A DNA stretch of 64,000 bases from a virus. Shown here in pieces: positions 44,194-47,641 of the stretch (positions are counted from its first letter, which is position 1; each line of letters opens with the position of its first letter). Location: positions 62,001-126,000 of IMG/VR virus record IMGVR_UViG_3300023116_000009; one strand, written 5' to 3'. The translations under genes were made by a program, and so were the position numbers. The notes beneath the pieces are model-generated. The model was not told where the DNA came from, made no database searches, and worked only from the letters and a program-made list of their open reading frames with translations.

Positions 44194-44625
44194 CTATGCT
44201 ACTGTCGAGGCAGTTTTCTTTTTTCCGATATTGTACTTTGATTCCAGTTCCCATTCGCCTTTTTCTTTGTACGACAGGACTTTGATCTGATTTAGTGGTG
44301 CGATGTCAAGAACACTATCAGTGTTAACAATACTAATCAAACCCCAATCGGAGAGAAGTTGGGCGATACGATTGCGACGCTGAACATCATTTTGAGTCAG
44401 GTTTGCTGTCTTGCCATCAAGGGCAAACAGTTCCTTAAAATGAACAATGTAATACTTACCTTGTTTGTGCAAAATGTGACAGGATTGATAGAGTTTTTTC
44501 TCTTTGCGTGATGCAACACCAATCCTTGAAAGTGTTTCTCTTACCTTAAGAAAGTCATCTGGTTGAGAGAGTTTTACCTCTACCATACTTTCACGAGTCC
44601 ACTGAACCTCAGCAACCTGAGTCAT
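44194..44625 (-). CDS. regA: Translational repressor RegA
   Basis: RegA core VEVKLSQPDDFLKVRETL, LYQSCHILHKQGKYYIVHFKE and LSDWGLISIV. RegA binds mRNA starts to switch off early gene translation. The ATG at 44625 has a strong GGAGGT site and a TAATG overlap with gp62, and adds 13 residues before the family start at 44586. Either may be used. Confidence 0.92.
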   Translation of the reverse strand: MTQVAEVQWTRESMVEVKLSQPDDFLKVRETLSRIGVASRKEKKLYQSCHILHKQGKYYIVHFKELFALDGKTANLTQNDVQRRNRIAQLLSDWGLISIVNTDSVLDIAPLNQIKVLSYKEKGEWELESKYNIGKKKTASTVA

Positions 44626-45023
44626 TACGTTTTACCTCCACGATTTAATTTTGATTTAATATAATCAATTTGTTTACTATTTAGAATTTTCAAAACTGCT
44701 TGTGCCTTCTCAGTACTATAATTATAGTATTCTTTGATGACTTCAAGATTGTCCAGTTTGTCCTTCTTTTCCCAGGGCGAGAAACGCTTTCTCTTCCTAA
44801 CGGTATTTATATAGAAATCGTACTGCATACGATTGGGTATATCGTGGTAGGTATTCATCTCATTAGCGAACATAATTGTATCGTAAAAAGACGACATACA
44901 CTTATTGACGATCCAAGATGGGTAGTTCTTCTCCCACCCTGGATCATCAGTGTTCATCAAGTTGGTTTTAGTTTCATTAATGGACTTTAAATAGTCCGTC
45001 AAACTATGACTGTACTTGCTCAT
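44625..45023 (-). CDS. 62: Clamp-loader small subunit gp62
   Basis: This 132-residue protein matches T4 gp62 in its SLTDYLKSINETK start and the FYINTVRKRKRFSPW block. With gp44 it loads the gp45 clamp. In this genome it is separated from gp44 by a methylase and a nuclease-like gene. Confidence 0.85.
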   Translation of the reverse strand: MSKYSHSLTDYLKSINETKTNLMNTDDPGWEKNYPSWIVNKCMSSFYDTIMFANEMNTYHDIPNRMQYDFYINTVRKRKRFSPWEKKDKLDNLEVIKEYYNYSTEKAQAVLKILNSKQIDYIKSKLNRGGKT

Positions 45024-45832
45024 CAGTAATTTAAAAGAAGAAGTTCTTTACGTTTCTTTTGATCTTCAGTATAAGTTCCAGTAGATCTCATGGTGTAAGT
45101 AAGGTCCCAATCTTTTTGTGTCCAGTCAGGAAATCTTTCCTTAACAAAAAGGTCAGAATTGTAAGTGATCATACACTTATGTTCAGAGTTTCTACAATGA
45201 GCAGCAAACATCTCATGATTAAAACCTTTGTGCATATTGCCCTTCTTACCATACAAGTTATCCTTGATATCGTATGGAGGGTCTAGAAAAACAAAGGCAT
45301 CATCACCATAAAGAAACTCACTGTAATCCTGGTTGGTAATCTTCCAAAACTGAATGATCTCAGAAACTCCAGGTAACTTATCAATACCCCTGAAGGTAAA
45401 ATTCTGCACAGATGCCTGCTTACTAAATGAAGAGGACTCAGACAGACCACTAAAAGAACACTTGTTGATAATGTAAAAATTGAATCCAGTAGAATACAAA
45501 TCCCCATGATCAATCTGACTCTTAGCATTTAGAAACGCTTCTCTGTGAGCGTCTTCACTCTCGCCCAGTTCGGTCTTGAGTTCTCTCAAATCACTATGAA
45601 GACGGTCTCCATCCTGCTGTAAGGTCTTCCAGAAGGCATACAGTGGGTAGTAGAGGTCATTGACCCAAATATGAGTGCGAGGTCTTTCCTGGGTCACGTG
45701 GAGTGCCATAGAACCGCCACCAAGAAAAGGTTCTATGTATTTGTCAAACTTCTTTGGAAGGTGTTGATCTAAGTATTTGATCGCCCTGGACTTGCCACCA
45801 GGATATCGAAGAGGTGTTTTAATTTTTGCCAT
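45023..45832 (-). CDS. dam: Adenine-specific DNA methyltransferase (D12/Dam class)
   Basis: 269 residues with PLRYPGGKSR, EPFLGGGSMA (SAM-binding motif I) and FLDPPYD (catalytic motif IV). Order I then IV is the alpha/D12 class that includes Dam and M.MboI; GATC is a plausible target but not proved. It lies in the replication operon between gp62 and a PD-(D/E)xK gene, with one-base overlaps on both sides. Confidence 0.9.
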   Translation of the reverse strand: MAKIKTPLRYPGGKSRAIKYLDQHLPKKFDKYIEPFLGGGSMALHVTQERPRTHIWVNDLYYPLYAFWKTLQQDGDRLHSDLRELKTELGESEDAHREAFLNAKSQIDHGDLYSTGFNFYIINKCSFSGLSESSSFSKQASVQNFTFRGIDKLPGVSEIIQFWKITNQDYSEFLYGDDAFVFLDPPYDIKDNLYGKKGNMHKGFNHEMFAAHCRNSEHKCMITYNSDLFVKERFPDWTQKDWDLTYTMRSTGTYTEDQKKRKELLLLNY

Positions 45833-46356
45833 CAGAGAATCCGCTCAACTCCATCAAGTATATCAGATGCCGTGATACTCTTGGGTGCTGGTGTAATACC
45901 AGTGAAAAGAACCGTAAAGTCCCCTGGTTGAAACTTCACTTTTGCAGTCGTTGATTTGGGAGTAAAGTACACACGTTTATTAACAGTATCCCAATCAGTG
46001 TAACCAATAGACATCCTTTCAGTATCAACTAAAAACATGTAATCAAAAGTTTTAGTTACAACTTTACTATCACCTGCAAAGTTCTTTAGAGTGATTACCT
46101 TTGTTGCTCCATTCTGTTGAAACAATTTAAGAGTTCCTTTCATTTCATAGCGAAGTTCATCTTCACCAATAAAATCAACTCCGTTCATATGATCACCAAC
46201 ATAACGGACTTGGTTGTCGCTCCACTTTGCAAACGACTTCTCTTGAAGATAAGTTCGGAAAGTTTTGAACGTGTTGGACTTCATCTCTTTGGTATTGGTA
46301 GCATTTACACAACCAAAGAACTCTTTCAAGTTGATGCGAGAAAAATCAAGATTCAT
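45832..46356 (-). CDS. PD-(D/E)xK nuclease-like partner of the methylase
   Basis: 174 residues. D61 and E71-M-K73 in VDFIGEDELRYEMKG fit D-x(9)-ExK. VITLKNF and FDYMFLVD follow, as in many type II restriction enzymes. It sits directly beside the adenine methylase. A restriction or methyl-directed nuclease role is inferred. It overlaps gp44 by four bases. Confidence 0.55.
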   Translation of the reverse strand: MNLDFSRINLKEFFGCVNATNTKEMKSNTFKTFRTYLQEKSFAKWSDNQVRYVGDHMNGVDFIGEDELRYEMKGTLKLFQQNGATKVITLKNFAGDSKVVTKTFDYMFLVDTERMSIGYTDWDTVNKRVYFTPKSTTAKVKFQPGDFTVLFTGITPAPKSITASDILDGVERIL

Positions 46357-47300
46357 TTAAATTCACACTCCACCATAATTTGAGTAAGGGCAGCAAGCAA
46401 GTTAATTTCCTGATCAGCAACAAATGCTGCTTTGTATTGATAGTCAGCAATAATCAATACTGCTTGAGGAATTGTACTTGGTTGAAGTTTAGAGTACAGG
46501 TTATCATAGATAGAACGAAAAATATGAGATGGTTCATTATCCATATTGTTCACAACCCATTTTTTCACAGTAGTAAACTGCTTATTCTTCAGTGCATCTA
46601 CGAGTTGCTCAAACTTAATGTCAGACAAACTAGCAAGAATGCCACTGTCAATTTGACCACCAACTGCATAACGTTGACACTCGTTAAGGGTACGACGCCA
46701 GTCAGGGAAGAACTTAAGAATTAGTTGGGGAAGAACCTTTTCATCATATTGTACGCCCTCATTCTCAAGTATAAACCTGAGACGGTCGAAAAACTTTCCT
46801 GCAAGGATTCGTTTGTCTGCTCCTGGGATGCCAAAGTCAACGACTGAGCATCTTGAGTGGAGGGGTTCAATGATTTTGTTTTTGAAGTTACAGGTGAAAA
46901 TAAACCGACAGTTGCCATGAAACGCCTCAATGTTCGCCCGTAGGGCGAGTTGAACATCGTGGGTCGTGTTGTCAGCTTCGTCAACAATAACGACTTTGTG
47001 TTTGGAGTCACTAGATAGTGATACGGTCGATGCAAAATTTTTGACCTTGTTTCGTACTGTGTCAAGATAGCGTCCCTCGTCAGATCCGTTAATGATAATG
47101 TAACTGGCACCAAGTTCCTCACAAAGTGCCCTGGCAACGGTTGTCTTACCAATGCCTGCGGTTCCATGAAGTAACAGGTTAGAAATCTGACCCGACTTCA
47201 AAAAACTTTTGAATGTTTCTTTGGTATTCTCTGGGAGAATACAATCTTCAATTGTCTTGGGTCGATACTTTTCAACCCAAAGAAATTCATCACGAGACAT
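46353..47300 (-). CDS. 44: Clamp-loader large subunit gp44
   Basis: This 315-residue AAA+ ATPase has FLWVEKYRP, Walker A HGTAGIGKTT, VDEADN Walker B and the arginine-finger region PLHSRC. It opens and loads gp45 with gp62. Confidence 0.94.
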   Translation of the reverse strand: MSRDEFLWVEKYRPKTIEDCILPENTKETFKSFLKSGQISNLLLHGTAGIGKTTVARALCEELGASYIIINGSDEGRYLDTVRNKVKNFASTVSLSSDSKHKVVIVDEADNTTHDVQLALRANIEAFHGNCRFIFTCNFKNKIIEPLHSRCSVVDFGIPGADKRILAGKFFDRLRFILENEGVQYDEKVLPQLILKFFPDWRRTLNECQRYAVGGQIDSGILASLSDIKFEQLVDALKNKQFTTVKKWVVNNMDNEPSHIFRSIYDNLYSKLQPSTIPQAVLIIADYQYKAAFVADQEINLLAALTQIMVECEFK

Positions 47301-47305
47301 AAAAT

Positions 47306-47641
47306 CTACTCAAGAGGTCTTACAAATTCGTTAGCAACCATGTCATTAGCGTGCATAGTGCTAAACATATATCTTACTGCAGATTCAGGTGAAGTGTGAT
47401 CTCCACATGTAAAAACGTCACATACTGCCATACCCAGTTCTGGCCAAGTATGAATGCTAATATGGGACTCAGCAAGCATAGCAACAGCAGTTACGCCTTG
47501 CGGTTCAAACTTGTGCGACACAAGATCGAGCAAAGTGCTTTGAGCAAGTGTCGCAGCATTAACTAACATTTCCCTAATGTAGGGTTCATCATCAAGAAGG
47601 ACTGCTGAACAATCCTTAAGAGTAAAAAGAATGTGTTTCAT
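47306..47641 (-). CDS. speD: S-adenosylmethionine decarboxylase
   Basis: This 111-residue prokaryote-type enzyme has the self-cleavage site E58-S59 in LAESHISIHTWPE and the proton-donor cysteine in CDVFTCGDH. It makes decarboxylated SAM for spermidine, which may help package DNA. It lies between gp44 and gp45. Confidence 0.94.
   Translation of the reverse strand: MKHILFTLKDCSAVLLDDEPYIREMLVNAATLAQSTLLDLVSHKFEPQGVTAVAMLAESHISIHTWPELGMAVCDVFTCGDHTSPESAVRYMFSTMHANDMVANEFVRPLE

What the first reader, a model, noticed from the sequence alone, without database searches (positions are those of the whole stretch)
45023..46356. Methylase plus PD-(D/E)xK gene pair inserted between clamp-loader genes
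T4 gp44 and gp62 are adjacent, but here they are split by a D12-class adenine methylase and a 174-residue protein with D61 and E71-x-K73 plus strands typical of type II restriction enzymes. All four genes are joined by one- to four-base overlaps. It could be a phage-borne restriction-modification pair that attacks host or rival DNA while protecting phage DNA, or a methyl-controlled nuclease tied to the replisome.
Basis: partly seen in the sequence, partly recalled or inferred. Interest (0 to 1): 0.8.

Follow-up and report, generated by a model that had tools for sequence, protein, structure and literature searches.

The report
Phage restriction-like nuclease beside DNA methylase
A marine cyanobacterial phage, like many of its uncultured relatives, carries a small restriction-enzyme-like DNA-cutting gene that overlaps a DNA-methylase gene, which looks like a virus-borne restriction-modification pair (rare in phages) that would cut unmarked host or rival DNA while sparing the phage's own.

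Summary
In detail: gp44, a 174-aa protein, a D12-class methylase and gp62 follow each other with 4-, 1- and 1-nt overlaps. The 174-aa protein has a confident predicted PD-(D/E)xK restriction fold (pLDDT 91; best PDB matches Eco15I, NhoI, DpnI, PvuII). E39, D61, E71 and K73 are invariant in 170 distinct relatives, down to about 20% identity. Cultured phages hold only two remote homologues, but more than 160 environmental cyanophage loci encode it. In 53 of 69 distinct copies it directly abuts the methylase, usually by the same 1-nt overlap, whereas its gap to gp44 varies. It was gained or lost at least four times beside the methylase, and divergent nucleases replace it in that slot in other phages. 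The methylase is the ordinary resident of this slot (>400 phage records) and is probably not a Dam: its closest characterised relative is the GGCC N4-cytosine methylase M.CbeI, and Bacteroidota relatives sit next to HaeIII-type enzymes. Genomes of the host family lack it (0 of 120). Best reading: a phage-borne type II-like restriction-modification pair. Activity, target site and in vivo target are untested. A homing endonuclease, or a nuclease evaded by loss of sites, is not excluded.

The parts
45832..46356 (-). 174-aa PD-(D/E)xK restriction-like endonuclease ('nuc')
   Evidence: AF2 model pLDDT 91; Foldseek PDB hits all restriction or homing endonucleases at the top; E39/D61/E71/K73 invariant in 170 distinct relatives; dN/dS about 0.10
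46138..46176 (-). active-site stretch D61-x9-E71-M-K73 (codons 46176-46174, 46146-46144, 46140-46138); E39 codon at 46242-46240
   Evidence: codon arithmetic; conservation; D61 and E71/K73 lie at the E62-64/E69-75 hairpin of the model
45023..45832 (-). 269-aa D12-class DNA methyltransferase (annotated 'Dam' in relatives), probably M.CbeI/DmtB-like N4-cytosine GGCC type
   Evidence: PF02086 E 2.4e-28; 39% identical to M.CbeI 7m6b; NCBIfam dam below cut-off; DPPY motif at about 45272-45283
45832..45832 (-). 1-nt TGATG overlap, nuclease stop / methylase start (translational coupling, inferred)
   Evidence: the same overlap in 40 of the 56 copies that have the methylase downstream
46353..46356 (-). 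4-nt ATGA overlap gp44 stop / nuclease start
   Evidence: this junction is variable in relatives
46353..47300 (-). gp44 clamp-loader large subunit (flank)
   Evidence: phrog_168 E 7.8e-132
44625..45023 (-). gp62 clamp-loader small subunit (flank)
   Evidence: phrog_225 E 1.7e-47

Best explanation
The two genes form a phage-borne type II-like restriction-modification pair. Shown: the 174-aa protein has a predicted PD-(D/E)xK restriction fold with complete, strictly conserved catalytic residues, and its gene overlaps that of a DNA methyltransferase. Inferred: the methylase (resident in most cyanomyoviruses; most likely N4-cytosine methylation of GGCC) marks the phage genome; the nuclease, made with the replication proteins, cuts DNA lacking that mark. 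The likeliest substrate is the host chromosome, because picocyanobacteria lack this methylase, giving host shut-off and nucleotide salvage; unmarked competing phages or plasmids are a second possible substrate. Phages that carry the methylase alone would be immune to the nucleases of their neighbours. The nuclease is an exchangeable part, gained and lost beside a fixed methylase.
For: Fold and active site. Linkage: 53 of 69 distinct nuclease genes lie within 18 nt of the methylase, 40 with a 1-nt overlap, while the gp44 gap runs from -4 to about 1400 nt. Gains/losses: 6 changes on the methylase tree, at least 4 forced by supported branches. Slot exchange: other nuclease types abut the same methylase in other phages (nuc397, nuc365, nuc329, nuc380/S-SM1 type, nuc366) and one HNH. 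Outside the clamp-loader locus the nuclease sits 54-86 bp after a different D12 methylase that has its own putative nuclease. Purifying selection, median dN/dS 0.10, like gp44 and the methylase. The methylase family works in R-M elsewhere: M.CbeI with CbeI (PMC3425538), Bacteroidota relatives next to PF09556 HaeIII enzymes. Host side: 0 of 120 other genomes of the host family have a close homologue. The presumed recognition block of the methylase is almost invariant with or without the nuclease, so one mark could pair with the nuclease in all of them.
Against: No activity data. More than 400 phage records have the methylase without this nuclease, so the methylase has a life of its own. Remote homologues occur without an adjacent methylase: the S-SCSM1 type near a helicase and S-SM1; one locus, L038, has the nuclease and a DruA-like gene in the methylase's place. 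Nucleases only 20-30% alike beside one constant methylase are awkward if all must share its site. Depleted palindromes do not track this nuclease, so its site is unknown. GGCC is already rare in all these phages (9 seen, 102 expected in this genome), so GGCC protection would matter little for the phage itself. Closest folds include modification-dependent enzymes (NhoI, Eco15I, DpnI), TM only about 0.45.
Confidence: 0.55

Rival explanations
1. A free-standing homing-type endonuclease (selfish): it cuts relatives lacking it near this slot and is copied in; the methylase next door is only a neighbour.
For: HNH endonuclease genes also enter this slot (L021, L338). The nuclease gene moves partly independently of the methylase: L014 nuclease 77% but methylase 51% identical to the window. 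A PD-(D/E)xK homing enzyme exists, I-Ssp6803I, and is a weak fold match (2ost, E 0.08). Patchy distribution.
Against: Contact is with the methylase start in different methylase clades, while the gap to gp44 varies; 1-nt coupling conserved; dN/dS 0.10; no broken copy among 69; found beside another D12 methylase in a different genome region. Several nuclease types take the same place.
Confidence: 0.2
2. A restriction-like nuclease that attacks host DNA, while the phage escapes by having lost the target site rather than by methylation; the methylase serves another purpose.
For: Phage genomes have totally missing palindromes: in this genome AGWCT 0 of 203 expected and CCGG 0 of 98; TTAA absent in G008/G009, GTAC in S-SM1. 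Carriers of the EcoRI-like nuclease deplete AATT in 18 of 18 loci.
Against: None of the missing palindromes tracks this nuclease: AGNCT is missing also in relatives with other nucleases and present in L004, L006 and L013, which have it. Conserved coupling to the methylase is then unexplained.
Confidence: 0.17
3. A methyl-directed repair or replication nuclease (MutH-like nick of unmethylated strands, or DpnI/BisI-like cut of methylated DNA) working with the clamp loader.
For: Position in the replication operon; top fold matches Eco15I-N, NhoI and DpnI are modification-dependent.
Against: MutH is not among the 50 best PDB matches; the clamp-loader contact is not conserved; cutting methylated DNA would destroy the phage's own genome; no room for a separate modification-reading domain in 174 aa.
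Confidence: 0.05

Closest known systems
M.CbeI / CbeI (Caldicellulosiruptor bescii GGCC R-M) and cyanobacterial DmtB / M.Ssp6803II
   Same: The methylase is a full-length homologue of M.CbeI (39% identity over 258 aa); the family is paired with a GGCC nuclease in bacteria (PMC3425538).
   Different: The phage nuclease is a separate small PD-(D/E)xK family with no Pfam HaeIII hit; the GGCC target of the phage methylase is inferred, not measured.
Chlorovirus R-M systems (e.g. CviAII; PMC7019647)
   Same: Virus-encoded methylase and nuclease genes side by side, used to degrade host DNA.
   Different: Eukaryotic algal viruses; nuclease packaged in the virion, packaging untested here. No direct sequence comparison was made.
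Marseillevirus mel_015/mel_016 R-M (PMC7253447)
   Same: Adjacent virus-borne pair, patchy presence, maintained without pseudogenes; proposed weapon against rival viruses.
   Different: GATC Dam-type, giant viruses of amoebae.
BisI family (Eco15I, NhoI; PMC11347163), DpnI, PvuII
   Same: Nearest solved folds to the nuclease; PvuII is of like size (157-residue chain).
   Different: TM about 0.3-0.5, 8-16% identity; no evidence for modification dependence or for a shared site.
I-Ssp6803I (PD-(D/E)xK homing endonuclease)
   Same: Small PD-(D/E)xK nuclease of mobile DNA.
   Different: Weak fold match (E 0.08); no methylase partner.

Membership tests
PD-(D/E)xK nuclease superfamily | alpha/beta restriction core | tested here: met
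   AF2 pLDDT 91, top PDB matches restriction enzymes, best E 1.2e-4
PD-(D/E)xK nuclease superfamily | D and (D/E)xK residues on the core hairpin, conserved | tested here: met
   D61, E71, K73 (and E39) in 170 of 170 distinct proteins
PD-(D/E)xK nuclease superfamily | metal-dependent DNA cleavage | not testable with these tools
   no experiment
Type II restriction-modification system | nuclease and methylase genes closely linked | tested here: met
   53 of 69 distinct copies directly adjacent
Type II restriction-modification system | both enzymes recognise the same short site; methylation blocks cutting | not testable with these tools
   site of the nuclease unknown; depletion analysis gave no answer
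Type II restriction-modification system | nuclease depends on the methylase for its presence | tested here: inconclusive
   close family nearly always with a methylase nearby; remote homologues without an adjacent one, genomes incomplete
Dam (GATC adenine methylase) | passes the curated dam model | tested here: not met
   TIGR00571 100.6 bits against a cut-off of 114.85
M.CbeI/DmtB alpha-class N4-cytosine methylase | full-length sequence relationship well above that to Dam-type enzymes | tested here: met
   7m6b 171 bits against DpnM 26 bits
M.CbeI/DmtB alpha-class N4-cytosine methylase | N4-methylation of GGCC | not testable with these tools
   needs long-read methylation data or digestion of phage DNA
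Homing endonuclease | conserved insertion point at or near its own long target | tested here: inconclusive
   insertion point varies relative to gp44, constant relative to methylase; target unknown
Homing endonuclease | degenerate copies from the homing cycle | tested here: not met
   none seen among 69 distinct copies; dN/dS 0.10

The most novel reading that the evidence does not exclude
Cyanomyoviruses keep one fixed, mis-annotated N4-cytosine (GGCC-type) methylase as a shared protection mark and plug interchangeable small restriction nucleases into the slot before it; further nuclease-methylase pairs (an EcoRI-like one whose carriers have lost AATT sites) sit elsewhere. Phage-borne R-M would then be a common weapon in marine phage-host or phage-phage conflict rather than a rarity.
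Probability: 0.3. Interest if true: 0.85.

Novelty: new variant of a known kind. Interest (0 to 1): 0.63.

Why it matters
Type II nucleases are said to occur only rarely on phages (PMC4081073), and my searches of the held library found none described in cyanophages. If right, it suggests what the methylase present in hundreds of cyanophage genomes protects against, gives a route for host DNA degradation in abundant marine phages, corrects the 'Dam' label, and can be tested directly with HaeIII digestion and long-read methylation calls on cultured phages.

Tried and rejected
Family libraries gave nothing for the nuclease. Bacterial relatives: none found in 84,980 genomes with the narrow profile. 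F-CphI of S-PM2 as a relative: rejected, it uses the Endo VII motif (PMC6083498). GATC as the site: dropped, because the methylase is M.CbeI-like (GATC is also not depleted, 0.89). AGNCT as the nuclease's site: 2 of about 208 in this genome, but rejected as nuclease-specific because relatives with other nucleases in the slot lack it too and three carriers of the nuclease have it (the pooled rows suffer from a cache error of mine and were redone, its per-locus rows are sound). EcoRI fold for the EcoRI-like protein: the model was weak (pLDDT 77) and PDB matches were not significant, so the resemblance rests on the PDGG...FExKKQ motif (recalled from EcoRI) and on AATT depletion.

Full report
Observation. 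On the minus strand the window holds gp45, speD, gp44, a 174-aa ORF (46356-45832), a 269-aa D12-class methylase (45832-45023), gp62 and regA. The junctions are ATGA (gp44/ORF), TGATG (ORF/methylase) and a 1-nt overlap with gp62. The record is an uncultured viral contig of 186,087 bases with one D12 methylase and one such nuclease. Its nearest isolates are T4-like cyanophages of Synechococcus.

What the ORF is. No library names it. Cultured phages hold only two remote homologues, S-SCSM1 (27%, E 0.6; pairwise E 6e-8) and S-SM1 SSM1_072 (23%; by length and position the best match in the viral structure library, TM 0.70). IMG/VR holds 162-210 relatives. An AlphaFold2 model from 50 relatives has pLDDT 91; the best PDB matches are Eco15I-N (E 1.2e-4), NhoI, DpnI and PvuII, with I-Ssp6803I weaker. 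In 50 close relatives D61, E71 and K73 never vary; in 170 distinct members of the wider superfamily E39, G59, D61, E71 and K73 never vary, although members are only 19-33% alike. Median dN/dS is 0.10, like the methylase (0.096) and gp44 (0.124). So it is a maintained PD-(D/E)xK nuclease (fold and residues shown; cleavage inferred).

Where it sits. Of 69 distinct nuclease genes, 53 are followed by the methylase within 18 nt; 40 share the window's 1-nt overlap; three more have the methylase 0.4-2.2 kb downstream. The distance to gp44 varies from a 4-nt overlap to about 1.4 kb. On a tree of 69 methylases, nuclease presence needs 6 changes, at least 4 forced by supported branches. The nuclease also moves without its methylase: L014 has 77% nuclease but 51% methylase identity to the window. 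A minority lies elsewhere: L058, L072 and L080 types follow a second D12 methylase that is preceded by an EcoRI-like gene; L065/L067 lie about 1.5 kb from another putative nuclease-methylase pair; L066/L131 lie 2.5 kb from a further methylase-like gene.

The slot. The methylase between gp44 and gp62 is ordinary: 421 phage records carry it. In cultured phages the space before it holds small ORFs, DenV, a 2OG oxygenase or nothing. In uncultured phages without this nuclease the place directly before the methylase can hold other nuclease-like genes: nuc397 (12 loci), nuc365 (2), nuc329 (4 contigs), nuc380/S-SM1 type (2), nuc366 (1; and after the methylase in P-RSM1), and one HNH. This exchange in one position, with contact to the methylase, is the strongest argument for a working pair; an HNH gene in the same place, and one between gp44 and the nuclease in L021, are the strongest arguments for a homing hot spot.

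The methylase. It is called Dam in databases, but the curated dam model is not passed. Its closest solved relative is 7m6b (171 bits; DpnM 26 bits), which is M.CbeI, an alpha-class N4-cytosine methylase of the GGCC system of C. bescii, related to DmtB of Anabaena (PMC8616854, PMC3425538). Identity is 39% over 258 aa. In Bacteroidota, relatives at about 30% identity lie directly before PF09556 HaeIII restriction genes, again pointing to GGCC. The block NKCSFSGL..SSSFS.QAS..NF is nearly invariant with and without the nuclease. I infer GGm4CC methylation; it is not measured. A search of the family of a Synechococcus MAG found no close homologue in 120 other genomes, the only strong match being a phage-like contig in that MAG itself, so host DNA would lack this mark.

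Mechanism. Most likely the methylase marks phage DNA and the nuclease, coupled to it in a replication operon, cuts unmarked DNA: the host chromosome first, rival phages second. Shown: predicted fold, residues, linkage, selection, host lack of the methylase. Inferred: activity, shared site, coupling, target.

Site depletion. This genome lacks AGWCT (0 of 203 expected) and CCGG (0 of 98) and is poor in GGCC (9 of 102) and AGCT (60 of 388). CCGG, GGCC and AGCT are widely avoided across cyanophages regardless of the nuclease, and AGNCT does not track it. The method does give a signal for another gene: all 18 loci with the EcoRI-like nuclease are depleted of AATT (pooled 0.33; other sets 0.82-1.07), the core of the EcoRI site. 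That pair is present in cultured S-BM1 (SBM1_00185/00186, 4-nt overlap), the nuclease in 65 phage records, and in L326 the two form one 470-aa ORF. This supports the general claim that cyanophages carry restriction-modification-like pairs, while showing that some also lose sites.

Known comparisons. Type II nucleases 'rarely occur on bacteriophages' (PMC4081073). Chloroviruses and marseilleviruses have adjacent virus-borne R-M genes used against host DNA or proposed against rivals (PMC7019647, PMC7253447). The finding works like these; membership as a type II R-M system is not established, because the shared site and the protection are untested. I therefore rate it a new variant of a known kind, interest 0.63.

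Noticed in passing
whole record G000, 184 kb incl. window: AGWCT is absent (0 seen, about 203 expected; AGNCT 2 of 208) and CCGG is absent (0 of 98); AGNCT is also missing in several relatives with or without the nuclease.
   Followed up: partly
L251:3547-4949, S-BM1 OQ319120.1:146858-148245: EcoRI-like gene (PDGG..FEGKKQ) overlapping a D12 methylase; 24 IMG/VR loci, 65 phage records; all 18 loci checked are depleted of AATT.
   Followed up: partly
L326:1887-3296: EcoRI-like domain and D12 methylase in one 470-aa open reading frame, a natural fusion.
   Followed up: no
L232:2190-3535: Another putative PD-(D/E)xK gene overlapping an N6/N4 methylase gene, 1.5 kb before a copy of the nuclease.
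   Followed up: partly
G008, G009 (L444-L449); S-SM1 L267: TTAA is completely absent from G008/G009 and GTAC from 50 kb of S-SM1.
   Followed up: no
Kyanoviridae T4-GC 161 'Dam' genes: Probably mis-annotated: closest characterised relative is the N4-cytosine GGCC methylase M.CbeI.
   Followed up: partly
L038:1568-2638: A DruA-like gene (PF14236) stands where the methylase usually is, next to the nuclease.
   Followed up: no
IMG/VR loci L143-L222; S-SCSM1: A second nuclease family (S-SCSM1 type) lies shortly after a ResIII-type helicase in 47 of 81 loci, without an adjacent methylase.
   Followed up: partly
window 47306-47641: speD (S-adenosylmethionine decarboxylase) between gp45 and gp44; it draws on the methylase's cofactor pool.
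   Followed up: no
L013:1925-2377: An unnamed 150-aa gene inserted between nuclease and methylase, no family hit.
   Followed up: no
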